DNA of 64,000 nucleotides, from NCBI GenBank assembly GCA_034440575.1, contig JAOTOL010001558.1, forward strand, positions 1,671,501 through 1,735,500, given 5' to 3'. The stretch is from Imbricaverruca yamaguchii (lineage: Eukaryota; Arthropoda; Thecostraca; Neoverrucidae). This document shows, piece by piece, positions 3,482 through 54,830 of the stretch. Positions within the stretch are counted from its first letter, which is position 1, and each line of letters begins with the position of its first letter. The notes beneath the pieces are model-generated. The model saw only the letters and a program-made list of their open reading frames with translations, ran no database searches and was not told the origin of the DNA. Made by a program: the position numbers and the translations under genes.

Positions 3482-3795
3482 TCACGCTCTACTGCTCTCA
3501 CGCTCTACTTTGTGGGTGCTGCAGAGAATGAATGGACCCAAAAATATTGACACCTCCCCGCCCGGTCCGGCGCACTCTCGGAGCTCCAGAGCGCCGTGTT
3601 TGCGGTGACGAGTCTGTCTCACCCGTTCCGAGTACTGAGGTCCAGGGCCGGTGTCCGAGAGACGCATCTTTTCCGGATCTGAAGTGGTTTCGTCAGACCG
3701 CGGGTGCAGGAACAGGACGCCGAAGTTGAGCTCCGGGATGTCGGCGAACACGGTCAGCAGCCACATGACCATCATGAGGCCGACCAGGAGGTAGC
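3482..3795 (-). CDS. K2P potassium channel, exon 5 (M4 and C-tail)
   Basis: The acceptor is CTCCTCCACAG followed by GCTACC at 3795. The exon's first two bases complete the Gly codon begun in exon 4. It encodes the fourth membrane helix, GYLLVGLMMVMWLLTVFADI, corresponding to the CYLLLGLIAML region of human KCNK1. A cytoplasmic tail follows (PELNFGVLFLHPRSDET...) and ends at a stop at 3482-3484. The summed exons make 367 codons, a normal size for a TWIK channel. An alternative donor, ACGG then GTGAGA, lies at 3623/3622, so the tail could be spliced onward to an unseen exon and only 3624-3795 would be certain. The acceptor is the last of about eleven tandem copies (see 3782-4262). Confidence 0.85.
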
Positions 3796-4262
3796 CTGTG
3801 GAGGAGAACAGTTGTCATGAGGCCGACCAGGAGGTAGCCTGTGGAGGAGAACAGTTGTCATGAGGCCGACCAGGAGGTAGCCTGTGGAGGAGAAGAGTTG
3901 TCATGAGGCCGACCAGGAGGTAGCCTGTGGAGGAGAAGAGTCGTCTGTGGCTCACCAGGAGGTAGCCTGTGGAGCTGTGGAGAAGAGTTGTCAGTGAGGC
4001 CACCAGGAGGTAGCCTGTGGAGGAGAAGAGTTGTCGGTGACAACCGGGAGGTGGCCTGCGGAGATGAGTCTCTGTGGAGTTGAGAAGAGTTGTCGGTGAC
4101 AACCGGGAGGTGGCCTGTGGAGATGAGTCGCACTGAGGCCGACCAGGAGGTAGCCTGTGGAGGAGAAGAGTTGTCGGTGACAACCGGGAGGTGGCCTGCG
4201 GAGATGAGTCGTCTGTGGCTCACCAGGAGGTAGCCTGTGGAGGAGAGTTGTCCTTGACCACC
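3782..4262 (-). repeat. Minisatellite of the exon 5 acceptor (43-base unit)
   Basis: About 11 copies of a 43-base unit, the last one being the real intron 4/exon 5 junction. On the minus strand each unit reads pyrimidine tract plus AG (CTCTTCTCCTCCACAG), then the first bases of exon 5 (GCTACCTCCTGGTCGGCCTC), then ATGACAA. The copies nearest the exon are almost identical. The far ones (about 4055-4262) carry inserts such as GAGATGAGTC and a changed CAG. Confidence 0.95.
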
Positions 4263-4279
4263 AGGTGGCATCGGTACCT

Positions 4280-5300
4280 GTTTTCCGGTGCTCGGGTCGA
4301 TTCGATGGAATTCCCTTGTGATTTTTTGGTGTTGTGCGCTAATTTTTTAAGCCTGCGACATATTTTTGGCCACCTGTGCGATTCCTTTGGCTTCCGGTGA
4401 GTTAATTTTTGGTGACCCAACATGTTCTTTTTCCCGTGCCGGACCCATTTTTTTCTCTTTTTTCTTTGACGCAATTTGTATGGCCACAGAGTGACATTCC
4501 GGGTAGGAATAGTTCTTGGGAAGTAAGCTGCGATTTGTTGGGCTCCTGCGCGACCTTTTGGACCTGAGTGGATTTTCAAAGGCAGCGGCGTGAAATTTGG
4601 CAGTCTAAGTGCGATTTGCAGGGGCACTGGCACGACCGTTTGGGCCCCAGCGTGATATTCAGGGGCCCACTCCGTCTTTTTTAACCGTATCGTAGTTTTC
4701 AAGGACCACGCCACCACTTTTTCGGGCCTTCAACATAATTTGCATTGGCCCAGGTGCGAAGTTTCGAGGCCCGCAGCGTAGATGTTAGGGGCCGCGTTTC
4801 AACTTTTGGGCGTTTCAGACAATTTTCAGGGCCCTGGCCGGACCTTTTGGGCCCTCAGCGTAACTTTCAGGAGCCCAGCCCGTTTTTTATTTGTCCCCAG
4901 CGTTATTTTCATGGGCTCCGGCAAGATTTCTTCGGCCCCAAGCGCGATTTCGAGTGCCCCGTCCGGACCTTTCGGGGTACACAGCGCGACTCGCAGTGCC
5001 CCTGGCATAACTTTTGGGGCCCAGCGTGATTTTCAGGAGCCCGGTCCGACTTTTTGAGCGCTAAGTGCGGTTTTCAAGGCCGCCGACACGATAATTTGAA
5101 GCCCCAGGGTGATTTGTATGGGCTTCGGCGCAAATGTTTGGGGTCTTAGCAGTAGTGTCTTAAGAGATTGTTGCCACTTTTTGGACCCCATAGTCATTTA
5201 TAGGGTCCTCGACGCGATTTTTAGGGACTCCCAATGCGATTTTCGAGTGTTTCGGTGCGATTTTGGGAACCTCAGCGACAAGGTTGTCTCAGAGTGGCAT
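4280..5300. repeat. Degenerate minisatellite, about 30-base period
   Basis: Phrases such as AGCGTGATTTTCAGG, GGCCCCAGCG and CGACCTTTTGGGCC recur every 28-32 bases with many changes. Translation gives a loose F-x-G-P-x-R-x-F pattern in more than one frame. It lies inside intron 4 of the channel gene and is not coding. Confidence 0.75.
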
Positions 5301-5504
5301 CTATGGTGAAGTGTGCCACATGGCTGTCTCCAGTATTGTAAAGTGGGTCGCCAGCACCGACCGCGAAGGGCATCAAGAAGAGCGGGAGATTGAGCTAGCT
5401 GGGTTCCTTTGGGCCAGAAGCGTCTGACGATGCACGCGTCCGGCACATGCGATAGAGCGGAACACAGCCACACAAGTCTCAGCCGTGCACCCCGGTGAAG
5501 TCAC
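5300..5504. other. Intron 4 DNA next to the exon 4 donor
   Basis: Unique intronic sequence with no recognisable feature. Confidence 0.5.
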
Positions 5505-5769
5505 CTGTGGTTAGCAGCTTGTAGAGGGGTCTGTAGTACTGGCCGGGGCCGGGGCCGTCCCCGGGTATGTAGTCGCCCAGCCCGACGGTCGTCAGCGAGA
5601 TGAAGCAGTAGTAGAGCGAGTCGAGGAAGCTCCAGCTCTCCTCCAGCCAGTTGAACAGCGCCGCCGGCACGATGAAGGCCAGGCCGACCACCAGCGTGCC
5701 CACCAGGCTCAGGTGCAGCAGGCGCACGCCCAGCGGCTTGTGCAGGTGGCCCAGCCGGGCGGTGAGCCA
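5505..5769 (-). CDS. K2P potassium channel, exon 4 (M3 and pore 2)
   Basis: The acceptor is GCTCCACAG, then TGGCTC at 5769 in phase 0. The donor is ACCACAG, then GTGACT, at 5505/5504, leaving one base (phase 1). There are 88 codons. The order is a short cytoplasmic link (WLTARLGHLHKPLGVR), M3 (LLHLSLVGTLVVGLAFIVPA), the LEESWSFLDSLYYCFIS pore helix and the second filter TTVGLGDYIPGD. The GLGD filter and the W-x-F-x-(D/E)-(S/A)-x-Y-(F/Y)-C-F-I-S block are diagnostic of K2P pore 2 and closest to KCNK1/KCNK6. GQYYRPLYKLLTT then leads into M4. In the family, two subunits supply four pore loops for a background potassium conductance at the plasma membrane. Confidence 0.93.
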
Positions 5770-6029
5770 CTGTGGAGCGGGACGACGGTTCGGCGAAGCA
5801 CCAAGATATGACCAAGATATGAACTAAGTGACAGCGTCAGACACGAGCCAGGTGATGGGCGTCGCACGACCAGCGCGGTCGTTGCGCCCCTCAGCCCAAA
5901 TAACCAGCCAGCCATGGACCAGATGCGGCCAATCGTTCGCGTGCCGCGCATAGCTTCGCAAACATACAAACATCTGGTGCCCCACGAGTAGCAGTGTAGA
6001 GTGATGTCAGTTCGTGTTTTGCGTGGTTC

Positions 6030-6190
6030 GCGACTCGCTGCGCACGATCACGCCATATGGCGCCACCCGCACTTTTTGGTGGGTCGCGGGATTGGGAAGT
6101 GTTTCGAATGTTGCGAGCGTCGAGCCCGGGTCCCTCGTATCCAGGTGTTCAACACTAACCACTCGACCACCGCCGCCCCGCTGAGTGGCA
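6030..6190 (-). mobile_element. SINE family A, diverged copy
   Basis: On the minus strand it keeps the family A order: tRNA-like head (GGTGGTCGAGTGGTTAG), B-box region, then CCCAATCCCGCGACCCACC and GGGTGGCGCCATATGG. It is much more diverged than the copies at 28600 and 30873. It lies in intron 3 of the channel gene. Confidence 0.6.
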
Positions 6191-6264
6191 TTCCACAAAA
6201 GACCTAAGGGAGGGCGGCGGAGCACTCGGCCGCTGAGTGTGGGCATGACAGCCGTGTACCGTTT

Positions 6265-6535
6265 GAGAATGGAGATCGCGACTACAATCCGTTAGACAGC
6301 GGATACCACACGGAGTATAAACCAATAAAGGGATGCGATACCCACATACTATTGGAGAATGGATACCATGACCTCAAACCGCTAGAAACCGATGCCACAC
6401 CAAGCATAAACCGACAAGTGGATGCGATACCCACATACTGTTGGGGAAGGGTTACCACGACCACAAACCGTTAGATAAGGGATGCAACAACAAGCACAAG
6501 CCGCTGAGGGATGCGATGCCCACACACTGTTGGGC
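6265..6535. repeat. Tandem repeat, about 60-70 base unit
   Basis: Four partial copies share GGGATGCGATACCCACA, then a variable TACTATTGGAGAA-like part and ACCACAAACCG-like ends. Intronic and non-coding. Confidence 0.7.
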
Positions 6536-6589
6536 GCAGGCCGTGACGAAGCACACAGGCAATTTGGCGTTCCAGGGCGTCTCCGGCCG

Positions 6590-6960
6590 GCTGATGAGGG
6601 GATAAGGAACGATCCCTGGGCCGATATGAAGGGGACCCCAGACTGATGAAAGGACTCCCGTGTTATTGGAAGAGGTCCCTGACTGACGGAGAGAGCCTCG
6701 GTCAGTGCAGATGATCACTGAACCAACACGGCGGGGTCCTGATCCGATGGTGAAGTAATCTAGCCGTCCTGGGTGACATCGTGCTGTCGAAGAGGACTCG
6801 GGGCCGATGTGAAGATCGTCTGTGCCGACGGGCAGACGCAAGGTGTCCCCAAGTGCATCATGGAGGGGGTTCTGGTTGCTAAGAGGCGTTGCGGACTGAA
6901 GCGAGCCCCTGAGCCCTCGTCATCACCGAGACCTCCTGACAGGTGGGGTCTCCGTTTGAA
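6590..6960. repeat. Degenerate 30-base repeat of the GGGCCC type
   Basis: Phrases such as GGGCCGATATGAAGGGGACC and GACTGATGAAAGGACTCC recur about every 30 bases with strong divergence. They resemble the arrays at 22350-23380 and 27405-28330. Confidence 0.5.
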
Positions 6961-6964
6961 ATTT

Positions 6965-7950
6965 GACATGGAAGGAGGCGCAATTGACTTTAAATTTAGC
7001 TAAGCACTATAAGTCAACTCCTTAGCTTAAACAAAGGGCACTGGATATCAACCAGTCAGCCTATCTTAGTAAGGCTATGTTTTGCAAGAAAATTGCATAC
7101 AAAAGCATTTGACCCCACCAGTAGGTGTTCAAGTTCTAAACTTCCAAAGTTCTACACATGAAAAAAAAACTTGAACATATTAATTGATTATTTGGGCTTA
7201 AGGGCGCGCCGACTACAAGGTCATTTACCTTTGACCATATTAAATGGTAGACATTAAGTTCACGTATACTAATTCCACAAAAAACGCATGAGTACACAAA
7301 TTTCACGTGAAAATCCGCAGCTGACGCACCAATCCTGCTCGGAGTCATGCAAGAAACTGAGCAAAATGAATGGATGATGTGTTAACAATCCGGTTTGTTC
7401 CAAGCGTGCCTAACTTGTGCCTAACTTGTGCCTATACGCGCATGCGATTCATGGCCCTATCCAACCTGCGAGAAATACTCACTCACAAGGCTTCCAGCCC
7501 GACAGAAGTCTCCGAATCAACGAAGAGGATCCTGGACCGTCGGGGAAGACAGGGGAGGATTCAGGTGCCAAGTTTGGGGGACGTGCCTTTCCTATCGAAA
7601 TAGTCTAATTATCTGATATCCGAACAAATTGGGGAGGCTGCCTTCTTGGTGCGCTTTGGTACCGAAGGTCCTCCAGGTTATCACGTGTTCGTGCATCTCA
7701 TCGACCCGTTTGCTACATTTTGACTGGACTCTGCCTCGCCTCGCCCAAAGTGACTTTCTCCGCGGGTCACGGCTCGCGATTTTCTTCGCGGCGCCGTTTC
7801 CGACCTGCGTCGATCGGCGTTAGAGGATGGGTGCAACTTAGAGGGACACTCCCAGCGAAATAAGACTCGCCAAAATTCACGGTGTCACTGAAAATTTGGA
7901 TGACCTCTTTGGCCAAATCCTAGTCGTCGTCGCTGCTTCGTGCCTCAGGA
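6965..7950. other. Intron 3 DNA, no gene; one dispersed motif
   Basis: Between 7186 and 7240 there is a copy of a dispersed motif (GGGCTTAAGGGCGCGCCGAC, then TACAAGGTCATTTA) that recurs near 58700. Nothing else is recognised. Confidence 0.5.
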
Positions 7951-7954
7951 GAGT

Positions 7955-8175
7955 TGTTGAAAGCACCATCAGTGTGATGTGTTTTGGGGGGAGGGTGTGG
8001 ATTGCGGGACTGTGGAGGATACCATCAGAGAGACTATACTAACCGGCTGGGACGCTGTAGAGAGCACCATCAGGGTGTGTGCGGGGGGACTGGCCCACAG
8101 GACTGCGAGGGACACCGTTAGTGGTGCACGGGTATACTGACCCGCAGGAGGGCCATCGAAGGCACCATCAGGTTC
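7955..8175 (-). repeat. Degenerate repeat of the exon 3 donor (about 48-base unit)
   Basis: The end of exon 3 on the minus strand (CTGATGGTGCCTTC...CTGCGG, donor GTCAGTATA) is followed by four decayed copies. They start near 8121 (CTAACGGTGTCCC), 8077 (CTGATGGTGCTCTC, with GGTTAGTATA), 8030 (CTGATGGTATCCTC) and 7973 (CTGATGGTGCTTTC). Most spacings are 44-57 bases. Some copies keep a GT donor and others have lost it. Confidence 0.8.
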
Positions 8176-8281
8176 TCGACGTATGCCGAGAGCAGCACCA
8201 GCGTCAGCGGTATCCCGGCCAGCGCGAACATGATGCAGAACAGCTTGCCGCCCTCGGACAGCGGAGTCACGTGGCCGTACC
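8142..8281 (-). CDS. K2P potassium channel, exon 3 (filter 1, M2)
   Basis: The acceptor is GTGCCCCCAG, then GGTACGG at 8281. The donor I prefer is CTGCGG, then GTCAGT, at 8142/8141. There are 46 codons plus two bases that complete the first filter Gly. The peptide starts YGHVTPLSEGGKLFCIMFAL (filter end and post-filter loop, as YGHTVPLSDGGKAFC in KCNK1). Next come M2 (AGIPLTLVLLSAYVENLM) and the M2-M3 link. A second in-frame donor, CTGATG then GTGCCT, lies at 8166/8165 and would remove eight codons. The longer form fits the usual invertebrate link better, but this choice rests on memory of the family. Confidence 0.88.
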
Positions 8282-8889
8282 CTGGGGGCACGGACAGAGG
8301 TCACGTCCGCTGCCACGCTGATGAGAACACCCACGCCGACCGTCCGTCGCGTCGCACGGCCATCGACCTGTGCCGACCACGGGCGCTGACGTCACGTTCT
8401 TCAATAGCACCGAGGGTGACTGACACGGCACGAACGGCTGGAAATGAAGAGCGCCGTGGAGAACTGACCTAGCTAATCCCACCGCAGGATATACTGAGGG
8501 CTATTGCGATGAGCATCGATGTGATTGATAATGACTTTGATTTTTGACACGTTTTCGTCGTAGTGAAAAATACATGTTTAAAAAATATGCTCGCGAGCTT
8601 CAATTCAATTGTCAATATAAGTAGGCACACTGTGTAATTACAACTTGTACATGACACGAAATATTCAAACATTCGGTTGTCGCACGTCGCATAGCTCGTT
8701 CCACTGCGTGCGTTATGTTTTTGGTCCTAATTCTTTCAGTGTCCCTTTTCAATGCAAATGTAGTAACGTTGTACGTTGTAAGTACTCTTCTAGCATATGT
8801 GAATTCCCAAGCATTTTAACCTTTATTTTACTGCGGCGGCTATTAGAATGTGTGGTGCCAGATGTAGTCAAGCAGCGCCGAGTTCCGAC
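8282..8889. other. Intron 2 of the channel gene
   Basis: A short intron splitting the first filter codon (TTI-G / YGH). This intron position is widely conserved in K2P genes. No repeats or motifs are seen inside. Confidence 0.8.
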
Positions 8890-9030
8890 CTATGGTTGTG
8901 ACCACCGTGGCCGAGAAGAAGAAGCTCTGCCCGAAGCTCCAGTTTGGCCCGCTGGAGACGTTGCTGGAGACGGAGACGCCGCGGTTGTTGGCCGTCACCA
9001 CCTCCGTGATGAGCTCCTCGAGGGCGGCGT
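8890..9030 (-). CDS. K2P potassium channel, exon 2 (cap and pore 1)
   Basis: The acceptor is TGTGCCCCAACAG, then ACGCC at 9030. The donor is ACCATAG, then GTCGGA, at 8890/8889. There are two bases, 46 codons and one base. The exon encodes the second cap helix (DAALEELITEVVTANNRGVS), a loop with N-V-S and N-W-S glycosylation sequons, and the pore-1 helix NWSFGQSFFFSATVVTTIG, which runs into the first filter. The pattern matches KCNK1 (SNYGVSVLSN...NWDFTSALFFASTVLSTTG), including the NRGVS/NYGVS turn. Exon 1 supplies the first base of the Asp codon. Together with exon 3 it gives TTIGYGH. Confidence 0.9.
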
Positions 9031-9112
9031 CTGTTGGGGCACAGATAGTCAGCGGGTGCCAGTCGCACTTCCGATGTATTGCGCTCGTGCACGAAAGCAT
9101 GATAACATCGTG

Positions 9113-9388
9113 ACCATGGTGATCAGCATCGTGATCATGGTGATCAGCATCGTGACCATGGTGATCAGCATCGTGATCATGGTGATCAGCATCGTGATCA
9201 TGGTGATCAGCATCGTGATCATGGTGATCAGCATCGTGATCATGGTGATCAGCATCGTGATCATGGTGATCAGCATCGTGACCATGGTGATCAGCATCGT
9301 GATCATGGTGATCAGCATCGTGATCATGGTGATCAGCATCGTGATCATGGTGATCAGCATCGTGATCATGGTGATCAGCATCGTGATC
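9113..9388. repeat. Minisatellite, 21-base unit rich in TGATCA
   Basis: About 13 near-perfect copies of GTGATCATGGTGATCAGCAT plus C. The only common change is GATCATGG to GACCATGG. Both strands are open in several frames (V-I-M-V-I-S-I on plus, D-A-D-H-H-D-H on minus) because 21 is a multiple of three. It lies in intron 1, 80 bases upstream of exon 2. Confidence 0.97.
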
Positions 9389-9830: not shown

Positions 9831-9934
<104 letters not shown>

Positions 9935-11525: not shown

Positions 11526-11529
11526 CATG

Positions 11530-12449: not shown

Positions 12450-13505
12450 TAAAGACATAAAAGATTAGTGCAACTATGAGCCACAAGGGCCCTTCTTGGT
12501 TGCACTCTGTACACTGAACCAGTTGCCCACCAAATATGTCAATCAGCCCTCCCTGTAATACTGAAAAGCAAGCCCTCTATTCATATAATGATTGTTTATG
12601 CTGTTTTTAAAGATGTTCAGTGTGCTGCTACTGACGATGTTTTCTGGCAGCTGGTTCCAGTGTTCCACTACCCTGTTGGTGAAGAAAGTTTGCCTTAACC
12701 TTGTTCTGCTGTGGTTAACTTTAATTTTGAATTTATGACCTCTAATTGCATCATTTCTGTTAAATTCAAACATTTCCCCAAGGTATCCCCTCTCCAGACC
12801 ATGGACAAATTTGAAGACCTCGATGAGATCTCCTCTCAGCCTTCTATATCTAAGTGAAAACATTAAATTTCTTCAATCTTTCCTCATATGCCAGGTTGCT
12901 TATGCCATTAACCATTTTTGTAGCCCTCTTTTGTACTCTCTCTAAAAGCCAACAATCTTTTTCATGGCTAGGAGACCAAGCTTGGATGCAGTAATCCAAA
13001 TGTGGCCTGACGTATGCACAGTAAAGCTTCCTGATCACTTCCTCACTTCTGTATGATACATTCCTATTTATTGCCCCGAGCATTCTCAGTGCCTTCTTCC
13101 TGGCTTCCTTGGTCTGTTCTGATGCCCCCAGTTTTGTGTTTAGAATAACACCTAAATCCTTCTCCTGTTGAGTCACTGGTAGCACTTGGCCACCTATCAA
13201 GTATGGAGCCTTCATATGCTGCTTACCTACATGCATGATTTTGCACTTATCAAAGTTAAATTTCATTTGCCATTCTTCGGACCACTTCACAAGTTCGTCT
13301 AAGTCTTTTTGCAGCGAGATATGCTCATCCTGACCTGTTATTGCCCTAAAGACCTTCAAATCATCCGCAAATTTCAAAACTTTACTGCTTAGGCCACTTT
13401 CAATGTTATTTACAAATATAATGAGCAGTAATGGCCCTAGTACTGACCCCTGGGGGACTCCACTAAGAACATTTTGCCATGATGACTTTGTACCATATCA
13501 GGAAC
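12450..13505 (-). mobile_element. CR1-like LINE, 5' truncated, broken ORF2
   Basis: The minus strand encodes the C-terminal half of a non-LTR reverse transcriptase. In order there is the SGVPQGSVLGPLL block (about 13470-13420), the FADD catalytic box (KFADDLKVF, about 13385-13355; FADD is a common YADD variant), EWQMKFNFDKCKIMHVGK, and the tail of the CR1/jockey group (RKKALRMLGAINR, YVRPHLDYCIQAWSP, LERVQKRATKMV). A one-base frameshift near 12860 separates this from the final block (RYRRLRGDLIEVFK, HWNQLPENIV). The 5' part is missing beyond 13505. The 3' UTR is at about 12450-12540 and ends in TTATGTCTT-type repeats. It lies in intron 1 of the channel gene. Confidence 0.92.
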
Positions 13506-13509
13506 ACAA

Positions 13510-18696: not shown

Positions 18697-19060
18697 GCCT
18701 GGCTACGCACCTACCTGGCACACAGCCATGTACTCGTTTGATGCATGGCTACCCACCCACCTGGCTACCCACCCACACACCTGGCTACCCGCTCACACAC
18801 CTGGCTACCCGCCCACCCACCTGGCTACCCACCCACACACCTGGCTACCCACCCACACACTTGGCTACCCGCTCACCCACCTGGCTACCCACCCACACAC
18901 CTGGCTACCCGCCCACCCACCTGGCTACCCGCCCACCCACCTGGCACACAGGTAGCCACTCGCCTGATACTCGGGTACCACCCACCTGACGAACGAGTAT
19001 CCACCATCTAGTATACGAGTACCTACCTGGTACACAACTACCCACCCACCTGGTACACAG
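18697..19060 (-). repeat. Minisatellite of the exon 1 donor (about 20-24 base unit)
   Basis: On the minus strand the exon 1 donor GTGTACCAG / GTGGGTGGGTAG is followed by about 16 units built on (T/G)(A/G)(G/C)CCAGGTGGGTGGG(C/T)(G/A)GGTAG. The copies nearest the exon still read TGTGTACCAGGTAGGT. The distal ones read TAGCCAGGTGGGTGGGCGGG. Most units keep a consensus CCAG/GTGGGT or CCAG/GTGTGT donor. Confidence 0.9.
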
Positions 19061-19293
19061 GCGTAGCTTCGCATGAACCGGCCGATGTGCGCGGTCAGCT
19101 GCTGCTTCAGCAGGTCCTCCTGCGGCTGCTCCAGGTAGCTGAAGACGCACGCACCCAGCGCCACGTACAGCAGGTAGAGCAGCGTGTAGGTGGCCAGCAG
19201 ACAGCTGCTGCGGCGCACACACAGACAGCGGCGCACGTGCGCGCGCTGGCCGGGCGAGTCGAGCGTCGAGTACGGCCCGTCCGGCGTAGACAT
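19050..19293 (-). CDS. K2P potassium channel (TWIK type), exon 1: start, M1, cap
   Basis: The ATG at 19293-19291 sits in GACC-ATG, with A at -3. There are 81 codons and one base to the donor CCAG/GTGGGT at 19050/19049. A short cytoplasmic N-terminus (MSTPDGPYSTLDSPGQR) leads to an Arg/Cys patch, M1 (LLYLLYVALGACVFSYLEQP) and the first cap helix (QEDLLKQQLTAHIGRFMRSY). A Cys in SYACVP aligns with the cap Cys of KCNK1 that bonds the two subunits. The E-x-P/QP-x-EDLL pattern is typical of KCNK1 and KCNK6. The whole gene covers about 15.8 kb with five exons. The family makes dimeric background K+ channels of the plasma membrane. No upstream acceptor is seen, so this is taken as the first coding exon. 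Confidence 0.9.
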
Positions 19294-45339: not shown

Positions 45340-47100
45340 TCATCACCACCTGCACGGCCCCGTTCCCCGTGTCACCACCTGTCCCGCCCCGCTCCCCGTG
45401 TCACCACCTATCCCGCCCTGCTCCCCGTGTCACCACCTGTCCCGCCCCACTCCCCGTGTCACCACCTGTCCCGTCCCTTCCCCGTGTCACCACCTGTCCC
45501 GCTCCCTCCATGTCACCACCTGTCCCGCCCCGCTCCCCGTGTCACCACCTGTCCCGCCCCGCTCCCCGTGTCACCACCTGTCCCGCCCCGCTCCCCGTGT
45601 CACCACCTGTCCCGCCCCGCTCCCCGTGTCACCACCTGTCCCGCCCCGCTCCCCGTGTCACCACCTGTCCCGCCCCGCTCCCCGTGTCACCACCTGTCCC
45701 GCCCCGCTCCCCGTGTCACCACCTGTCCTGCCCCGCCCCCCGTGTCACCACCTGTCCGCCCCGCTCCCCGTGTCACCACCTGTCCCGCCCCGCTCCCCGT
45801 GTCACCACCTGTCCCGCCCCGCTCCCCGTGTCACCACCTGTCCCGCCCCGCTCCCCGTGTCACCACCTGTCCCGCCCCGCTCCCCGTGTCACCACCTGTC
45901 CCGCCCTGCTCCCCGTGTCACCACCTGTCCCGCCCCCTCCGTGTCACCACCTGTCCCCCGCTCCCCGTGTCCACCTGTCCCGCCCGCTCCCCGTGTCACC
46001 ACCTGTCCCGCCCCGCTCCCCGTGTCACCACCTGTCCTGCCCCGCTCCCCGTGTCACCACCTGTCCCGCCCCGCTCCCCGTGTCACCACCTGTCCCGCCC
46101 CGCTCCCCGTGTCACCACCTGTCCCGCCCCGCTCCCCGTGTCACCACCTGTCCCGCCCCGCTCCCCGTGTCACCACCTGTCCCGCCCCCGCTCCCCGTGT
46201 CACCACCTGTCCCGCCCCGCTCCCCGTGTCACCACCTGTCCCGCCCCGCTCCCCGTGTCACCACCTGTCCCGCCCCGCTCCCCGTGTCACCACCTGTCCC
46301 GCCCCGCTCCCCGTGTCACCACCTGTCCCGCCCCGCTCCCCGTGTCACCACCTGTCCCGCCCCGCTCCCCGTGTCACCACCTGTCCCGCCCCCGCTCCCC
46401 GTGTCACCACCTGTCCCGCCCCGCTCCCCGTGTCACCACCTGTCCCGCCCCGCTCCCCGTGTCACCACCTGTCCCGCCCCGCTCCCCGTGTCACCACCTG
46501 TCCCGCCCCGCTCCCCGTGTCACCACCTGTCCCGCCCCGCTCCCCGTGTCACCACCTGTCCCGCCCCGCTCCCCGTGTCACCACCTGTCCCGCCCTGCTC
46601 TCCCCGTGTCACCACCTGTCCGCCCCGCTCCCCGTGTCACCACCTGTCCCGCCCCGCTCCCCGTGTCACCACCTGTCCCGCCCCGCTCCCCGTGTCACCA
46701 CCTGTCCCGCCCCGCTCCCCGTGTCACCACCTGTCCCGCCCCTGCTCCCCGTGTCACCACCTGTCCCGCCCCGCTCCCCGTGTCACCACCTGTCCCGCCC
46801 TGCTCCCCGTGTCACCACCTGTCCCGCCCCGCTCCCCGTGTCACCACCTGTCCCGCCCCGCTCCCCGTGTCACCACCTGTCCCGCCCCGCTCCCCGTGTC
46901 ACCCCCCGTCCCCCCTGCTCCCCGTGTCACCACCTGTCCCGCCCCGCTCCCCGTGTCACCACCTGTCCCTCCCTGCTCCCCGTGTCACCACCTGTCCCGG
47001 CCCGTTCCCCGTGTCACCACCTGTCCCGCCCCGCTCCCGTGTCGCTCCCCGTGTCACCACCTGTCCCGCCCCGCTCCCCGTGTCGCTCCCCGTGTCACCA
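45340..47100. repeat. Minisatellite, 29-base unit, about 60 copies, abutting PCMT exon 5
   Basis: The unit is GCTCCCCGTGTCACCACCTG followed by TCCCGCCCC. On the minus strand each unit reads GCGGGACAG/GTGGTGACACGG, a donor-like sequence similar to the true exon 5 end CCGGGCAG/GTGCTGG. Copies are nearly identical over 1.7 kb. The plus strand is open for 973 codons through it, a repeat artefact. Confidence 0.97.
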
Positions 47101-47112
47101 GCTGCCCAGCAC

Positions 47113-47285
47113 CTGCCCGGCCACTGCTTCCGCTTGTCGGTGAGCGGCACGTAGACGACGCCCAGCAGCCGGGAGCGGGTGACCGAGCCGTCGGCCGCCT
47201 TGTCCACCTGCTCCATGAACTGGTGGTCGCCCTCGCCGCCGACGGGGATCAGCAGCCGGCCGCCCGGCTTCAGCTGGTCCACCAG
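47113..47285 (-). CDS. PCMT1: Protein-L-isoaspartate O-methyltransferase, exon 5
   Basis: The acceptor is CCGCCGGCAG, then CTGGTGGAC at 47285 in phase 0. There are 57 codons plus AG to the donor GGGCAG/GTGCTGG at 47113/47112. The peptide starts [20 protein letters not shown] and includes [10 protein letters not shown] and [18 protein letters not shown]. It matches human PCMT1 ('[16 protein letters not shown]...LMGVIYVPLTDKEKQW'). The human gene also breaks after KQWSR, with the last residues (WK or DEL) on the next exon, so a very short terminal exon is expected downstream. If the donor is not used, the frame runs on into the 29-base array and stops at 46956-46958, adding about 52 repeat-coded residues. 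Confidence 0.9.
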
Positions 47286-47786: not shown

Positions 47787-48110
47787 GCCCCGGTAGCTCA
47801 GTTGGTTAGAGCGCTGGCCTGCACTGATCTCCTCTGTACGGGGTTCGAGTCGCTTCGTGCGCTCGCATTTAGCCCCCGGCCGGGAGTGTCAGTTGGCAGC
47901 TGGCCCGATAAGGCCGGGGACGAGTTACCGGGTGGCCATGTCGGTGCATTGGCGGCACGTTAAACTTTCGGTCTAAATTCTGCCGTTGAGCTGGAGTTCA
48001 TGGATCGGATGGTGGGGTCAGGGTTCGTGAAACAAGCTCTGCTTAGCAATATAACCCTGGCTCCTCAAGCCACCACAACAACTCGGATTAAATTTTTAAT
48101 CAATAGGAAC
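47787..48110 (+). mobile_element. SINE family C, long copy
   Basis: The tRNA-like head is GCCCCGGTAGCTCAGTTGGT, TAGAGCGCTGG, with B-box GGGGTTCGAGTCG. The body includes CCCGGCCGGGAGTGTCAGTT and GACGAGTTACCGGGTGG. A second conserved block starts at TTCATGGATC and includes CAAGCTCTGCTTAGCAATAT, AACCCTGGCTCCT and AAGCCACCACAACAACTCGG. Both blocks recur in inverted orientation at 60870-61178. Confidence 0.88.
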
Positions 48111-48429: not shown

Positions 48430-48636
48430 CTGCTCGGGCAGCACGGGCGCCGCGGCGCCCACGTGTATGACGTCATATGGCGCCAGCTGACTGTAGCCGA
48501 GGCGGCCGTCGCCGGCGACCAGCCGCACCCGGCCGGACGCCAGCAGGTGCGGCTGGTCCTTCTGCACGTTGCGCCGCGACTGCTCCACCAGCTCGTCGAT
48601 GTGGTCAATGCCGACGGCGGCACCCTGCTCCCCGAC
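48430..48636 (-). CDS. PCMT1: Protein-L-isoaspartate O-methyltransferase, exon 4
   Basis: The acceptor is CTCCATCGCCAG, then GTCGGG at 48636. The donor is GAGCAG/GTGAGC at 48430/48429. There are 69 codons, phase 0 at both ends. The peptide runs VGEQGAAVGIDHIDELVEQS, RRNVQKDQPHLLASGRVRLV, AGDGRLGYSQLAPYDVIHVG, AAAPVLPEQ. GIDHI-x-ELV and GDGR-x-GY...APYD-x-IHVGAAAP are signature blocks of the isoaspartyl methyltransferase family: the SAM ribose-binding acid, motif II and the substrate-side loop. This exon alone identifies the family. Confidence 0.96.
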
Positions 48637-49416
48637 CTGGCGATGGAGGTCAGATCGGCTGACACCCAGCTTGTCACCGCTCCGCAATACCGACAGCGAA
48701 GGTCGTCCGATAGCAAAGTACTCCATATGGTCCAACACTGCTTCCTTACCTGATAACGAATGTAATGTTAGGTCATATCGCACTAGTAGTACAGTTTGCT
48801 GAAACACCTGACCGCGAGGTCATGTCAGGTCGATATCATCTCAGTTAGGATATACTCCAACGGACAGCGCGTGCTTGCTCGGTGATGCATCCACCAACAG
48901 TGCGGCGCAGGCAGTGATGCACCCGCCATCAGCAGGAGGCAGGCCTCGGTGTTAACACTGCTGATGCCACTGCTTGGTAAAATTGACTCGTATCCTAATC
49001 GAAAACTGTATTCTTCGCAATTTTGCACGGAATCAGCTTGCGCCGGTTACTGCGTTCACAAATTTTCACACACGACCTACATCCGCAGAAAGTCCGCGCG
49101 TTCACAGGCCAACAAAGCCCCTGACGGCCGTGAACTATAAACATACTATCTGCAGAGGGAGTGATCGGTGCATCAAATCGGTGCTGAAGAGGATAAAAAC
49201 TGCACCAACGTTACGATCAGTCAACATTGTCATCGATGTCATATAAAAATAGACTACGTCAATCCAGCGGACACACCTGCCATCTAGCGACACTAGCCAC
49301 AAGCAATAATAACAGACGATCCGAATAGGTGGCTCTAAATGCACTACAGCTATAATCAACAACACAACACACACCATCAAAGCGCCGCAGGCAGTGATAC
49401 TCCCATCATCAGCAAG
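48637..49416. other. Intron 3 of PCMT, unique part
   Basis: No repeats or motifs of note apart from the SINE that follows. Confidence 0.5.
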
Positions 49417-49428
49417 AACACAGCACAG

Positions 49429-49592
49429 TTGTTTGTTTGCTTGTTTATTGGTTGGTTCACGACACACTTTATGCACATTCACGGCTAATAGCGCCGCCCA
49501 CATTGTGTCGCCGGTGGGCCGCGGGATTGGGAAATGTCCTAAGTGGCGCTAGAGTCGAACCCGGAACCTTTGGTACCCATAGCCCGACACCT
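49429..49592 (-). mobile_element. SINE family A, head-truncated, with target-site duplication
   Basis: On the minus strand it begins at AGGTGTCGGGCTATGGGTAC, lacking the first 20 or so bases of the head including the A-box. It is otherwise complete. The 12-base repeats AACACAGCACAG flank it at 49417-49428 and 49593-49604. The truncation therefore happened at insertion. Confidence 0.94.
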
Positions 49593-49619
49593 AACACAGC
49601 ACAGCAGGAACAAGACAGA

Positions 49620-49945
49620 TACCATCAGCGTGAGGCAAGCGGTGGTGTACCCACAATTAGCTGGAGATAGGGGTGATGCACTCACCGTTAGCGCGAGACA
49701 AGTGGTGGTGTACCCACCATCAGTGCGAGACAGACGGTGGTGTACCCACCATCAGTGCGAGACAGACGGTGGTGTACCCACCATCAGCGCGAGACAGACG
49801 GTGGTGTACCCACCATCAGCGCGAGACAGACGGTGGTGCACCCGCCATCAGCGCGAGACAGACGGTGGTGTGCCCACCATCAGCGCGAGACAGGCGGTGA
49901 CGTACCCACCATCAGCGCGAGACAGACGGTGATGTACCCACCATC
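49620..49945 (-). repeat. Minisatellite of the PCMT exon 3 donor (32-base unit)
   Basis: The minus-strand unit is TCACCGTCTGTCTCGCGCTG, ATG, then GTGGGTACA. The first 23 bases copy the last bases of exon 3 (CACCGCCTGTCTCGCGCTGATG) and the rest copies the donor. About ten copies follow the real junction. The seven or eight nearest are almost identical and keep GTGGGTA or GTGGGCA. The farthest, near 49630-49690, are decayed. Confidence 0.96.
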
Positions 49946-50046
49946 AGCGCGAGACAGGCGGTGAGGTAGCCGCTGCCGGAGCCGATGTCCAGCGCTTTGG
50001 CGCCCGCCGTCAGACGTGACGATAGGTTCTCCAGCGCGAACGCGTG
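49942..50046 (-). CDS. PCMT1: Protein-L-isoaspartate O-methyltransferase, exon 3 (SAM motif I)
   Basis: The acceptor is TTTGTCGTTTCAG, then CACGCG at 50046. The donor is CTGATG/GTGGGT at 49942/49941. There are 35 codons, phase 0 both ends: [20 protein letters not shown] and [15 protein letters not shown]. It includes the SAM-binding motif [14 protein letters not shown], which in human PCMT1 reads ALDVGSGSGILTA. Using any decoy donor in the adjoining array would keep intron sequence and meet a TGA within 10 codons (CGC-TGA in the next unit). Confidence 0.95.
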
Positions 50047-50254
50047 CTGAAACGACAAAGTGCCACGTGAGCTCACACGTGCTCGGGGCATGGTGCACTT
50101 GCGGCCAATCTGGTGCTGGCACATCACGCTTTCCACCCAGCTGCATGACCGACGCAGTCGATGCGCCCTCAATCTCAAACGCTTTCCACCCAATGCCGTC
50201 ATGGGAACTCGACTATCCTATCCTGCCCATTCAATTCAGCCCGGAAACACGAGC

Positions 50255-50316
50255 TGTATCACGCCGATTGGTCGCGGGGGAGACAAGCAACTTACCCCTA
50301 GGCTACTTGTCCCCCA
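50255..50316 (-). mobile_element. SINE family B, internally deleted fragment
   Basis: On the minus strand it has the head GGGGGACAAGTAGCCTAGGG GTAAGTTGC joined directly to CGCGACCAATCGGCGTGATA. The B-box and about 40 bases are missing. Confidence 0.75.
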
Positions 50317-51184
50317 GCTGTGTCACACTGCATGGCACAGACATATACATGTGGAGCTTAGGTACACTTACGATTACAAAGTGCCCCTTTGTCAACCTTA
50401 CGCCCATCAATGATCAACAATGTAGTCAGACACCATCCTTGGGGTGATCGGGAAACCTGGGTCGAATATCTTCTAGAAAATTGAAGATTTTGCTGACAGT
50501 GTTTGGTGTTTACTTTCGAATGCCAAAATTGACGCCGAACTTGTGGGGTTATTCGAAGATTACACCGAGGGATAACCAAATGAAAAATCTGCTAATGTAT
50601 TATTGCATATATGACCTGAAATGTAGCGTGGCATAGCATTAAAGCTTTGGCTGTTTTCGTGGTGCATTGATATTGATATGCCGTCCATTGCTTGTGGAAT
50701 TATGATGGCGAAGCGGTGGGGTAAAAACCTGTCTCCAGTGGCTGTGTATGGGACACCGCACTCTTGACTGGTGCCCTGAGCTCATCTCAGTACCCGCGCG
50801 CAACCAACACGAGGTAGTCATATACACTCGAACGGTGAATTGGCGCACGAATCTGGCAAGGGTCACGAATATTTGCCCAGGTATGATTCGCATGTTGCAT
50901 TTGGCGTTCGCTCCCTTGCAAAGTGCAAAGTATGCAAGGTGGTGGGTGTATCGCGTGCTCGCGTATCGCGGCCGTAGTTTGTCTGTGAGGTACGTCCTGG
51001 ATTTTGCGGCAACTGGCAGCAGGAACCTCCTCAACCTACTGTGGAGGTCACCCTCTCTCCCCGAGCGGAACCTCGTCTGCGGTACGGACCGGGCCGCGAT
51101 GTCGTGCTGTCCAGCACGCGGGGCCGCCGCCCACACTCTGGGCGGAGACACGGATCAGAGCTGCCAGCGCCGGCGTCATCCAGT
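50317..51184. other. Intron 2 of PCMT, no features
   Basis: Long frames occur on both strands (for example 50639-51151 minus) without family motifs. Considered non-coding. Confidence 0.45.
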
Positions 51185-51990
51185 CACAGTAGCGCCGTTC
51201 CGCTCACAAGGACACCGCTCCGCTCACACGGACACCGCTCCGCTCACATGGGAACCACTCCCCTCACACGGCCACCGCTCCACTCACACGGACACCACTC
51301 CCCTCACACAGCCACCACACCCTCACACGGACACCACTCCACTCACACGGTCACCACTTCACTCACACAGCCACCACACCCTCAAACGGACACCGCTCCA
51401 CTCACACGGACACCGCCCCACATACACGAGCGCTGCTACACTCACACGGACACCGCTCCACTCACACGGACACCGTTCCACCCACCCTGACACCACCCCC
51501 TCACCCTGACACGGACACCACTCCCTCACACGGACACCACTCCCCTCACCCTGACACCACTCCCCTCACACGGACACCACTCCACTCACCCTGACACCAC
51601 TCCACTCACACGGACACCACTCCACTCACCCTGACACCACTCCCCTCACACGGACACCGTTCCACTCACCCTGACACACCCCTCACACGGACACCGTTCC
51701 ACCCACCCTGACACCACTCCCTCACACGGACCCCGTTCCACCCACCCTGACACCACTCCCTCACACGAACCCCGTTCCACTCACCCTGACACCACTCCCA
51801 TCACACGGACACCGCTCCCCTCACACGGACACCGCTCCGCTCACCCTGACATCACTCTCCTCACACGGACACCGTTCCACTCACCCTGACACCACTCCCC
51901 TCACACGAACCCCTTTCCACTCACCCTGACACCACTTCCCTCACACGGACCCCGTTCCACTCACACTGACACCACTCCCCTCACACGGCG
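51185..51990. repeat. Minisatellite, 17-18 base units (CACACGGACACCACTCC)
   Basis: About 45 units alternate between CTCACACGGACACCACTCC and CTCACCCTGACACCACTCC, giving a higher-order dimer of about 35 bases in the right half. Confidence 0.95.
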
Positions 51991-52059
51991 TTGTGTCGGC
52001 TAAGCCCGCCGAAGACGCGGCGGCCATCGCGGTCCAGCTGGCGCGGTGCGGCACCACGA

Positions 52060-52125
52060 CTGCCTCCGGCGCTACAGCCGGGGCACGGCGCTACAGCCGG
52101 GTCACGGCGCTACAGACGGGGCACG
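52060..52125. repeat. 19-base repeat GGCGCTACAGCCGGGTCAC
   Basis: Three copies with small changes. Confidence 0.88.
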
Positions 52126-52309
52126 GCGCTGCCCTGCTGCCGGCCGTCACCCGTCAGCCACACCCGCTGACGCCCCGCTGACGCCCCGGGCATCCACCGT
52201 CACGACCGGGGTAGGCTCGCCACCGGTGTAGCGCAACCGCCGCCACGCCGCTCACCACGTGACGCCAACTATCAGGCAGTGGTGTCATGCGCCAGAAGGA
52301 TAGTGCAAC

Positions 52310-52680
52310 AAAACTTACCGTGTGCGGGGCCGATGTGGCAATACCACTCACAATGTGTACAGCCGATATGGCAGCACCACTCACCATGTGCGGGGCCGAT
52401 ATGGTAGTACCAAGCACGATGTGTGCATTCGATATGGCAACACCACTTACAATGTGCGGGGCCGGTATAGTGGCACCACTCAACATGGATGCAGATGATA
52501 TGGTAACACCAAAGCGACGTAGGCACGTGGGCCTGATATGGTAGCATCACTTGTCGTGTGCAAGTTTAATATGATAACATCACTCATTTTTTGTGGTGTC
52601 GATGTGACACTATTATCAAACATGTGAGATGCCGCTATGGCACCACCACTCACCATATGTAGCATCGACATCACAATACA
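52310..52680 (-). repeat. Minisatellite of the PCMT exon 2 donor (33-base unit)
   Basis: On the minus strand the unit reads CCATATCGGCCCCGCACATG, then GTGAGTGGTGTTG. It copies the end of exon 2 (ACCATATCGGCACCGCACATG) plus the donor (true site GTGAGA). About 11 copies are present. Those at 52330-52470 are clear, and some keep GTGAGT or GTAAGT. Those at 52510-52680 are decayed. It is separated from the real junction (52989) by the 52690-52975 repeat. Confidence 0.93.
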
Positions 52681-52689
52681 ACTTACAGT

Positions 52690-52975
52690 ACAATTACGTA
52701 CATTTGCTCTTACGTACATCTGGAGTTTAGGGGCGCATCGACTACATCGGTCATGCAGCTCTTGCGTACATCTGCCACACGTACATTTTCCATACATACG
52801 TTTGTGTTGTCCATGCATACGTTTGTGTGCATCTGCCATACGTATTTTTGCGCACACTGCCATTCGTACATTCGTCCTTACGTACATTTGTCCTTACGCA
52901 CATTTGCCATTATGTGCATTGGTCCTTACGTGCATGTGTCCTTACGTGCATCTGTCCTTACGTACATTTGTTCTG
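52690..52975. repeat. Degenerate 17-base repeat (CCTTACGTACATTTGT)
   Basis: Words TTACGTACATTTG(T/C) and CATACGTTTGTG recur about every 17 bases. The stretch opens near 52728 with a copy of the dispersed motif (GTTTAGGGGCGCATCGACTA). Confidence 0.85.
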
Positions 52976-52988
52976 GAGTCGCTCTCAC

Positions 52989-53125
52989 CATGTGCGGTGC
53001 CGATATGGTGACCCCGTAGCCGATCGACTGGGGCCGGTCTGAGTACGGGCTGTGCGGGCAGTAGTTTCCGCGGTCCACCTGCTTCATGACGCGCTCCACC
53101 CGGTCGGACTCGATCACACCGTTGG
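52989..53125 (-). CDS. PCMT1: Protein-L-isoaspartate O-methyltransferase, exon 2
   Basis: The acceptor is ATCCGGCCGCAG, then CCAACGG at 53125. The donor is GCACATG/GTGAGA at 52989/52988. There are two bases that finish an Ala codon, then 45 codons: NGVIESDRVERVMKQVDRGN, YCPHSPYSDRPQSIGYGVTI, SAPHM. It matches human PCMT1 (NGIIKTDKVFEVM..VDR..Y...PY-D-PQSIG....TISAPHM). The Ser of TISAPHM belongs to the active-site loop that holds the isoaspartyl substrate. The exon is flanked on both sides by arrays made from its own junctions. Confidence 0.95.
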
Positions 53126-53127
53126 CT

Positions 53128-53735
53128 GCGGCCGGATGGAGCGGTCATCACTCACACTCAGTAATCAGTCACAACAGGCCAGCGGCCACACCCGGTCACC
53201 TGTCACACTCAGTAATCAGTCACAACCGGCCAGCGGCCACACCCGGTCACCTGTCACACTCAGTAATCAGTCACAACCGGCCAGCGGCCACACCCGGTCA
53301 TCACTCACACTGAGCAATCAGTCACAACCGGCCAGCGGCCACACCCGGTCATCTGTCACACTCAGTAATCAGTCACAACCGGCCAGCGGCCACACCCGGT
53401 CACCTGTCACACTCAGTAATCAGTCACAACCGGCCAGCGGCCACACCCGGTCACCTGTCACACTCAGTAATCAGTCACAACCGGCCAGCGGCCACACCCG
53501 GTCATCACTCACACTGAGCAATCAGTCACAACCGGCCAGCGGCCACACCCGGTCACCTGTCACACTCAGTAATCAGTCACAACCGGCCAGCGGCCACACC
53601 CAGTCATCACTCACACTGAGCAATCAGTCACAACCGGCCAGCGGCCACACCCAGTCACCTGTCACACACAGTAATCAGTCACAACCGGCCAGCGGCCACA
53701 CCCAGTCATCTGTCACACTCAGTAATCCAGTGTCC
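53128..53735 (-). repeat. Minisatellite of the PCMT exon 2 acceptor, AG lost (51-base unit)
   Basis: About 12 copies. On the minus strand the real junction reads GAGTGTGAGTGATGACCG, CTCCATCCGGCCGCAG, then CCAACGGTGTGATCG. The unit reads GAGTGTGAGTGATGACCG, GGTGTGGCCGCTGG, then CCGGTTGTGACTG. The first 18 bases are identical and the rest aligns, but the acceptor CAG has become CTG in all copies I read. Two unit types alternate: ATGACC and CAGGTGACC. Confidence 0.88.
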
Positions 53736-54006
53736 TAAAATGACTTCACCATTAACTGTGTGGATGCAGAAAGAAGTTGCTTGGGGATAGTGAAAGATTG
53801 GAAGAAAATAAAGGATCGCCACTTCAGGATTAAAAAAGCGGAATGCCTTTCACTTCAGTCACATGCATTTTACATTATTTAACAGTCGTGTGCATAATGA
53901 CTGCCCACACATGTGGCAAAATAGTAAAAACCTAAGACAAGGATGAAATAGCACAATTCCATTAACTGTGACTTTCCAGGCCACATGGTCTATTATTTTA
54001 GACTGC
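53736..54006. other. Unrelated insert splitting the 51-base array
   Basis: Non-repetitive AT-rich DNA of about 270 bases. CCATTAACTGTG occurs near both ends (53750-53761 and 53959-53970). The array resumes in register at CAGTAATCAGTCACAACCGG. Possible small mobile element of unknown type. Confidence 0.6.
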
Positions 54007-54830
54007 AGTAATCAGTCACAACCGGCCAGCGGCCACACCCGGTCATCACTCACACTGATCAATCGGTCACAACCGGCCAGCGGCCACACCCGGTCACCTG
54101 TCACACTCAGTAATCAGTCACAACGGGCCAGCGGCCACACCCGGTCACCTGTCACACTGAGCAATCAGTCACAACCGGCCAGCGGCCACACCCGGTCATC
54201 ACTCACACTGAGCAATCAGTCACAACCGGTCAGCGGCAGCGCCCGGTCACCTGTTACAATCAGTAATCAGTCACCTCGGAAATCAGTCACACCTGGTCAC
54301 CTGTCACAATCAGCAATCAGTCACACCCGGCCATCGGTCGCACCCGGTCATCACTCACACTGAGCGATCAGTCGCACCAGGCCATCGGCCACACTCAGTA
54401 ATCAGTCGTACCCGGCCATCAGCAGCACCCGGTCACCTGTCACACCCGGTTATCGGTTGCACCCAGTCATCAGTCACATTAAGCAATCAATCACACCCAT
54501 CCGTCGGTTACACTTGGTAATCAGTCATGCCTGGTCATTGGCTACACCCAGTCATCGGTCACACTCAGTGATCAGCCACTCAGTCATCAATCATACACAG
54601 AAGTCAGTTACCCAGTAATCAGTTACTCAGAAATCAGTCACTGATTAATCATTCACTCAGTAATCAGTGATACCCGGCTATTAGCAACACCAGATCACCA
54701 GTCACACTCATTAGTCAATCACAACCCATAACCAGTCACTCAGTAATCAGTTACACCAGAGCATCGGTCATACTCAGTAATGAGTCACACCCGGTCATCG
54801 GCCACTCAGCAATAAGTAACACCCAGTAGT
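54007..54830. repeat. Array continued, then decaying CAGTCA-type repeat
   Basis: Four or five further 51-base units run to about 54230. Beyond them is a long decay into about 16-17 base words (CACCCGGTCATCGGTCACA, TCAGTAATCAGTCA). Confidence 0.88.

What the first reader, a model, noticed from the sequence alone, without database searches (positions are those of the whole stretch)
3782..54230. Splice-junction minisatellites: many arrays are amplified exon-intron boundaries
In two unrelated neighbouring genes at least six arrays are built from the junction they touch. These are K2P exon 1 donor, exon 3 donor and exon 5 acceptor, and PCMT exon 2 acceptor, exon 2 donor and exon 3 donor. PCMT exon 5 donor is a likely seventh. 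In each, the unit carries 8-30 bases of exon edge plus the splice signal, so a true site stands at the head of a ladder of decoys. Units differ fully between arrays (23, 29, 32, 33, 43, 48 and 51 bases), so this is one process acting many times, not one repeat family. The process could be slippage or repair near splice sites, perhaps tied to R-loops or to gene-edge recombination. I know of no such genome-wide pattern described.
Basis: partly seen in the sequence, partly recalled or inferred. Interest (0 to 1): 0.93.

Follow-up and report, generated by a model that had tools for sequence, protein, structure and literature searches.

The report
Minisatellites grown from splice junctions
In a barnacle genome, some 6 to 10 in a hundred tested borders between coding and non-coding gene pieces have been copied many times in a row into the non-coding side, the same kind of structure known as 'mirages' in lancelets, which leaves long rows of look-alike splice sites beside the real one.

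Summary
The core observation holds. Internal exon joins of both genes are codon-exact. Of the seven arrays named, four carry their own junction clearly (K2P exon 5 acceptor, K2P exon 1 donor, PCMT exon 3 donor, PCMT exon 2 donor, the last about 335 bp from its exon), two are weak or degenerate (K2P exon 3 donor, PCMT exon 5 donor), and PCMT exon 2 acceptor fails. I then sampled protein-kinase exons from across the same 767 Mb genome, chosen without regard to repeats. Exon edge recurs in the adjoining intron at 6 of 98 edges fixed by protein homology alone and at 10 of 97 by a splice-site-based test; exon interiors give 0 of 566 at score 16. Array starts in the exon's last 45-9 nt are 3.6 times the uniform expectation (9 of 62, p=0.0008); GC explains about 1.3x. 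So it is a many-gene pattern with unrelated units. It has a precedent: amphioxus 'mirages' are the same kind. New here are a crustacean host and a frequency estimate. Best mechanism: small tandem duplications across junctions, amplified into the intron and kept alive by the conserved exon edge (last step inferred).

The parts
3480..3795 (-). K2P (KCNK1/6-like) exon 5, acceptor at 3795 (lower end not verified)
   Evidence: gapless join to orthologues
3772..4246 (-). 43-bp array: K2P exon 5 acceptor copied, 19 nt intron + 24 nt exon per unit (read from sequence), 7 copies scored, AG kept in 7 of 7
5505..5769 (-). K2P exon 4; no junction array detected
7905..8171 (-). Degenerate ~45-50 bp repeat containing K2P exon 3 3' end and donor (limits read by eye)
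   Evidence: 30-nt exon edge score 16; straddle test not significant
8142..8281 (-). K2P exon 3
8890..9030 (-). K2P exon 2; no junction array detected (a 21-bp array lies 76 bp upstream of its acceptor)
18751..19060 (-). Array at K2P exon 1 donor (TRF 18751-18945, the rest read by eye); unit about 20-22 bp carrying ~11 nt exon end (TGTGTACCAG) plus GTGGGT
   Evidence: (straddle 19, 0 of 105 controls; exon part alone 11, 1 of 105)
19050..19293 (-). K2P exon 1 (ATG at 19293, donor CAG|GTGGGT at 19050)
45343..47113 (-). 29-bp array of ~59 copies at PCMT exon 5 donor; resemblance to exon end ~10 nt, borderline
   Evidence: 14, 1 of 105 controls
47113..47285 (-). PCMT exon 5 (donor not confirmed by a following exon)
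48430..48636 (-). PCMT exon 4; no junction array detected
49621..49963 (-). 32-bp array: last 30 nt of PCMT exon 3 plus GT per unit (read from sequence), 10 copies scored, GT kept in 7 of 10
   Evidence: 26, 0 of 105 controls
49942..50046 (-). PCMT exon 3
52305..52660 (-). 33/66-bp degenerate array (TRF 52305-52511) resembling PCMT exon 2 3' end plus donor; begins about 335 bp into the intron, behind an unrelated 16-bp array
   Evidence: (19, 0 of 105 controls)
52989..53125 (-). PCMT exon 2 (acceptor not confirmed by a preceding exon)
53152..54478 (-). 51-bp array close to the PCMT exon 2 acceptor; exon sequence NOT detectably in the unit; split by an interspersed element at about 53728-54005
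   Evidence: 11, 10 of 105 controls

Best explanation
These are 'mirages': minisatellites founded by a tandem duplication of about 20-60 bp that happened to span a splice junction, then amplified by slippage or unequal exchange into the intron. Shown: in the clear cases each unit carries the exon edge plus the adjoining GT or AG; the copies lie in the adjoining intron; units are local and unrelated between the loci compared; array starts are in excess at junctions. Inferred: splicing keeps using the exon-proximal site, so the copies are tolerated. Inferred: the founding duplication is randomly placed, since the exonic share of the unit ranges from about 0.3 to 0.94. Inferred, and the boldest step: the excess arises because the exon edge (and, at acceptors, the pyrimidine tract) is held constant by selection and so acts as a permanent seed from which copies are renewed, while purely intronic arrays decay and vanish.
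For: Window. Kinase sample: 6 of 98 homology-defined exon edges at score 18 or more versus 0 of 566 interior words (Fisher p=9e-6); 10 of 97 exon-only and 13 of 97 straddling words pass a score limit and beat every other locus. Array starts: 9 of 62 in the last 45-9 nt of exon versus 2.5 expected (p=0.0008), and 17 of 62 within -45..+30 versus 5.2 (p=9e-6). Donor side: 3.2 starts per kb over -45..0, 0.3 in 0..60, 0 in 60..210, 0.8 in 210..800; acceptor side: 1.4, 3.1, 1.25 and 0.35. That is roughly where conserved sequence lies, which suits the seed model. GC alone predicts 1.3x. Arrays of 300 bp or more: 11 at junctions, 11 elsewhere, p=1e-5. Exon-likeness falls with distance from the exon in 9 of 10 arrays. 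Exonic shares of 11 units, read by eye, are not significantly non-uniform. One locus present on two contigs has 8 versus 9 array copies with different spacing, and a related gene copy (L067) has the same acceptor without the exon-carrying array of L035. Splice signal adjoins 134 of 160 copies (sum over ten arrays); decoy donors score about as well as the true one.
Against: The seed step is not directly tested. Only 3 of 10 polarity correlations reach p<0.05 singly, one is positive (L020), and any array's far end tends to be degenerate. Donors show no wholly intronic array start within +12..210 (0 of 31, p=0.0004), fewer than the seed model alone predicts. The spread of exonic shares is biased, because units with few exon bases would not be recognised. 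In L035 only 4 of 13 copies keep the signal. Interior words are not perfectly clean at lower scores: 3 of 566 at 15, 1 of 404 in the first set. Of the 13 straddling positives, four (L049, L037, L048 and L052 acceptors) do not pass on exon sequence alone; of the ten exon-only positives, L064 has a doubtful donor placement and L066 is degenerate. L067 has a different 29-bp array starting 30 nt from its exon. No RNA shows which site is used. One gene family (kinases, 56 exons) carries the genome-wide claim. PCMT exon 2 acceptor has a nearby array without exon sequence.
Confidence: 0.6

Rival explanations
1. Mutational hotspot: co-transcriptional splicing, R-loops or nucleosome edges make splice junctions break or slip more often, so duplications are born there.
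For: Start density at donor junctions exceeds deep introns about fourfold (test); at donors the excess is almost confined to windows that include the junction.
Against: Unit boundaries show no fixed register to the junction (exonic share 0.32-0.94 over 11 units); sense GC skew does not single out junction arrays.
Confidence: 0.25
2. Ordinary chance: introns here are so rich in minisatellites that some straddle junctions, and only there is the ancestor still readable.
For: 19.5% of sampled intron flank is in arrays; 21-29% of intronic 30-mers in 58 kinase flanks have a copy in the same flank, more than the 6-10% seen for exon edges.
Against: Uniform placement predicts 2.5 exon-overlapping starts, 9 seen; 5.2 within -45..+30, 17 seen; GC explains only 1.3x.
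Confidence: 0.1
3. Intron gain or sliding: exonic tandem duplications were turned into intron (Rogers / 'mirage' intron-gain model), so the arrays mark young introns or moved donors.
For: In PCMT e3 and L047 nearly the whole unit is exonic (30 of 32 and 45 of 49 nt by eye), the GT lying at the start of the copied exon piece.
Against: Most other units contain substantial intron sequence; the K2P e5 unit carries its pyrimidine tract; two kinases (L027, L044) share the same phase-2 intron position, suggesting old introns.
Confidence: 0.12
4. Selection for backup splice sites: copies are kept because they rescue splicing when the exon-proximal site mutates.
For: Decoy signals are mostly intact (134 of 160) and as strong as the true site.
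Against: Use of the first decoy would shift the frame or meet a stop in 10 of 12 donor cases (counted; the exceptions are L020 and L040, where it would insert in frame); recent amplification alone keeps signals intact.
Confidence: 0.05
5. One mobile or dispersed repeat family inserting at junctions, or an assembly artefact.
For: None found; interspersed elements do exist in the sample.
Against: Edge words rarely match other loci's introns (0.3-0.8% of 4,218 pairs at score 14-16); units vary within arrays, and two contigs carrying one locus differ in copy number.
Confidence: 0.03

Closest known systems
Amphioxus 'mirages' (Adh3, globins BflGb6/BflGb9, TnC, PGBD5)
   Same: Minisatellite-like tandem duplications of exon-intron boundaries; both donor and acceptor ends; units from 10 to 160 bp; many copies keep AG/GT; copy number differs between haplotypes; regular splicing reported undisturbed (PMC3087553: section 16 read whole; PMC3902484: passages; the Adh paper itself, PMC117041, is not held).
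   Different: Cephalochordates, reported gene by gene in what I saw. Here a barnacle, with a frequency estimate (6 of 98 to 10 of 97 kinase junctions) and a positional test against intron density.
Human IFI6 (6-16) minisatellite providing multiple splice donor sites (NAR 1995)
   Same: A minisatellite carrying many donor sites in one transcript.
   Different: A single gene; I saw only the title in a reference list, the gene and its layout are recalled.
Intron gain by tandem duplication of proto-splice sites (Rogers; Gao and Lynch; Drosophila near-intron pairs, PMC2891723)
   Same: Tandem duplication around AG/GT signals.
   Different: There the duplication makes a new intron; here arrays sit at introns and the exon is unchanged relative to orthologues where tested (abstract of PMC2891723 seen; the others only as cited in PMC3087553).

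Membership tests
mirage (amphioxus-type exon-intron boundary minisatellite) | Tandem repeat unit spans an exon-intron boundary | tested here: met
   4 of 7 named window arrays clear; 13 of 97 kinase junctions by straddling word, nine of them also on exon sequence alone
mirage (amphioxus-type exon-intron boundary minisatellite) | Many copies carry the splice signal | tested here: met
   GT/AG adjoining 134 of 160 copies in 10 arrays; lowest 4 of 13 in L035
mirage (amphioxus-type exon-intron boundary minisatellite) | Length instability between haplotypes | tested here: inconclusive
   One locus present on two contigs has 8 versus 9 array copies with different spacing; haplotype versus recent duplication not decided
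mirage (amphioxus-type exon-intron boundary minisatellite) | Regular splicing not disturbed | not testable with these tools
   No RNA; joined exons are gapless to orthologues at seven internal joins, which fits
mirage (amphioxus-type exon-intron boundary minisatellite) | Somatic instability | not testable with these tools
   Needs reads
dispersed repeat family / introner-like element | Same sequence at many loci | tested here: not met
   Within the loci held, junction words rarely match other loci's introns; a whole-genome unit search could not be run (tool busy)
intron gain by tandem duplication | Intron itself is new at that position | not tested
   No gene structures of relatives available

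The most novel reading that the evidence does not exclude
Conserved splice junctions act genome-wide as perpetual founders of minisatellites: purifying selection preserves the seed, so tandem arrays are renewed there again and again, lengthen introns, and leave some 6-10% of junctions with a ladder of equally strong decoy sites that the spliceosome must reject by position alone.
Probability: 0.35. Interest if true: 0.82.

Novelty: new member of a known kind. Interest (0 to 1): 0.6.

Why it matters
It moves boundary minisatellites from a handful of amphioxus genes to a frequent feature of a crustacean genome, with a number attached. It offers natural tests of splice-site choice: rows of near-identical donors, of which the exon-proximal one gives the conserved protein. 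It also gives a concrete route by which introns lengthen, donors shift or new introns arise, and a testable idea that conserved sequence seeds repeat birth. Gene predictors and short-read splice callers could be misled at such junctions.

Tried and rejected
PCMT exon 2 acceptor as a junction-derived array: rejected. GC content as the cause of the excess: predicts 1.3x only. R-loop signature by GC skew: no separation. L044 donor first counted as exon-derived: the donor had been miscalled by 19 nt and the array holds at most a few exon bases; corrected but still inside the counts (9 of 98 at score 16 or more becomes 8; 10 of 62 becomes 9). L040 donor was miscalled by 15 nt and corrected; it stays positive. 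L074 acceptor was dropped because of N letters (98 edges become 97). L064's called donor lies 23 nt inside the HMM match, so that positive is doubtful. Kinase exons used: 56 of 136 matches, those that were partial matches and for which letters could be had; one search added the first 20 of 68 remaining two-edged exons in order of E-value. L036 and L040 hold the same locus and are not independent. A second gene family (PF00225) and a whole-genome search with the PCMT e3 unit were asked repeatedly and never answered. Nine literature searches showed no report of such arrays in barnacles or other crustaceans; three of them used barnacle terms and returned no paper at all; two listings were capped (25 of 92, 20 of 56), and the library lacks most subscription papers. 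Ten other stretches of the window gave no Pfam match over a curated cut-off; one shows a reverse-transcriptase fragment below it; no tRNA or Rfam match.
Full report
What the window is. The window is G000:C1325:1671501-1735500 of a 767,457,503-base assembly in 1,430 contigs. The K2P protein read from it is 76% identical to a Pollicipes pollicipes protein and 68% to an Amphibalanus amphitrite one, so the host is inferred to be a barnacle or near relative; its name is not given. Both genes lie on the minus strand. Joining PCMT exons 2-5 gives a protein that aligns to human PCMT1 without a gap over 205 residues. The K2P exons join without a gap against barnacle and insect orthologues at all four joins. 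Seven internal joins are therefore fixed by homology. PCMT exon 2 acceptor and exon 5 donor have no partner exon to confirm them. There is no RNA.

What is at the seven named junctions. Tandem Repeats Finder lists 95 rows in the window, so arrays are common. I asked of 16 junctions whether a 28-nt word straddling the junction recurs in its own intron better than in the introns of 105 junctions outside the same gene. Four do, above every control: K2P exon 5 acceptor (score 28 of a possible 28), PCMT exon 3 donor (26), K2P exon 1 donor (19) and PCMT exon 2 donor (19). For K2P exon 1 the exon part alone scores 11, equalled by 1 of 105. The unit at K2P exon 5 reads as 19 nt of intron end plus 24 nt of exon start; the unit at PCMT exon 3 as the last 30 nt of the exon plus GT. 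PCMT exon 5 donor is borderline (14; 1 of 105). K2P exon 3 donor fails this word (10; 11 of 105) but its 30-nt exon edge has one copy of score 16. PCMT exon 2 acceptor is not supported (11; 10 of 105). PCMT exon 2's donor array begins about 335 bp from the exon. The other nine junctions score no better than controls.

Is it more than this window? I located protein-kinase exons over the whole genome (PF00069, 136 matches) without looking at repeats, and obtained letters around 56 of them. With exon edges defined only by the end of the HMM match, 6 of 98 edge 30-mers have a copy of score 18 or more in the adjoining 900 bp; 0 of 566 interior 30-mers of the same exons do (Fisher p=9e-6). At score 15 the interior words give 3 of 566 and the HMM-defined edges still 6 of 98. 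With splice sites placed by a generic matrix, and two misplacements corrected, 10 of 97 exon-only words and 13 of 97 straddling words pass a score limit and beat every other locus; rank alone would give about one. Of the ten, seven are donors and three acceptors; L064 (donor placement doubtful) and L066 (degenerate) are the weak ones. Of the thirteen, four acceptors (L049, L037, L048, L052) do not pass on exon sequence alone. Clear examples by eye: L047 (49-bp unit, 45 exonic), L032 (46 bp, 30 copies scored), L052 (32 bp), L020 (57 bp), L027 (35 bp), L040, and acceptors L035 and L049.

Is it more than intron density predicts? In 97 flanks of up to 900 bp, 19.5% of intron is in arrays and 62 arrays are found. 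Under uniform placement 2.5 should start in the exon's last 45-9 nt; 9 do after correcting L044 (p=0.0008; donors 6 of 31, p=0.001; acceptors 3 of 31, p=0.13). Within -45..+30, 17 start against 5.2 expected (p=9e-6). This null lets arrays start up to 45 nt inside coding sequence freely, so it is conservative. Expected enrichment from GC is 1.3x. Per kb of flank, donor-side starts are 3.2 over -45..0, 0.3 in 0-60, 0 in 60-210 and 0.8 in 210-800; acceptor-side starts are 1.4, 3.1, 1.25 and 0.35. So arrays are anchored on the exon edge at donors, and mostly on the last tens of intron bases at acceptors. Arrays of 300 bp or more are half at junctions (11 of 22; p=1e-5). Against this, plain intronic 30-mers have a nearby copy more often (21-29%) than exon edges do; the excess is in where arrays begin, not in coverage.

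How it probably works. Founder: a small tandem duplication across the junction. The exonic share of the unit ranges from 0.32 to 0.94 over 11 units read by eye and is not significantly non-uniform, so the breakpoints show no fixed register; units with few exon bases would have been missed. Growth is away from the exon: in the cases shown the true donor is the most upstream copy and the true acceptor the most downstream, and no array starts at -90..-45. A GT or AG adjoins 134 of 160 copies over ten arrays, and decoy donors score about as well as the true one, so splicing must choose by position if the protein is to be made; this is inferred. Use of the first decoy would shift the frame or meet a stop in 10 of 12 donor cases (counted). 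Copy number changes: the locus on C794 and C387 has 8 and 9 array copies besides the exon, with different spacing. A related gene copy (L067; CK2-like by recall) has the same acceptor without the exon-carrying array seen in L035, though a different 29-bp array starts 30 nt away. Exon-likeness falls with distance in 9 of 10 arrays, singly significant in three, as if renewal comes from the exon end. I propose that the conserved edge is a lasting seed. A birth hotspot at junctions is the main rival and is not excluded.

What is known. [quoted passage not shown] Adh3 data and globin RT-PCR suggested normal splicing (PMC3087553, section 16 read; PMC3902484, passages). The Adh paper (PMC117041) is not held. 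A human minisatellite with multiple donors was seen by title only. Nine searches showed nothing on barnacles or crustaceans (some listings capped). The kind is therefore known; the host, the frequency and the positional test are new as far as these searches reach.

Limits. One gene family; 97-98 edges; no RNA; generic splice matrix; L036 and L040 hold one locus. Counts include the L044 miscall. The whole-genome unit search and a second family could not be run because the tool did not complete.

Noticed in passing
window 53728-54005: An interspersed element of about 280 bp, 88-91% identical to copies in L017, L028, L033 and L063, sits inside the 51-bp array and splits it into 53152-53727 and 54002-54478; CAGTAATC-like bases on both sides could be a target-site duplication.
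   Followed up: partly
window about 47787-48095: A tRNA-like interspersed repeat (box-B-like GGTTCGAGTC read by eye) with an 86% identical copy in L038; ARAGORN calls no tRNA.
   Followed up: partly
window 12853-13377, minus: Reverse-transcriptase fragment (RVT_1, E=4.5e-5, below the curated cut-off).
   Followed up: no
window 2146-2346, plus: A coding-like stretch after CCGTGCCGCAG, about 50 bp behind the large 1257-2097 array; possibly another gene's last exon with an array near its acceptor. No Pfam match.
   Followed up: no
window 9106-9388: A nearly perfect 21-bp array (13.5 copies, 98% matches) with a palindromic unit, 76 bp upstream of the K2P exon 2 acceptor.
   Followed up: no
donor flanks of the kinase sample: Of 31 arrays in 49 donor flanks none starts between +12 and +210, where uniform placement predicts about 6.8 (p=0.0004); acceptor flanks show the opposite (16 of 31 against 6.9).
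   Followed up: partly
L036 and L040: Two contigs carry the same CDK-like (by recall) locus at 93.9% identity over 2,450 bp, so the assembly may keep some diverged haplotypes apart.
   Followed up: partly
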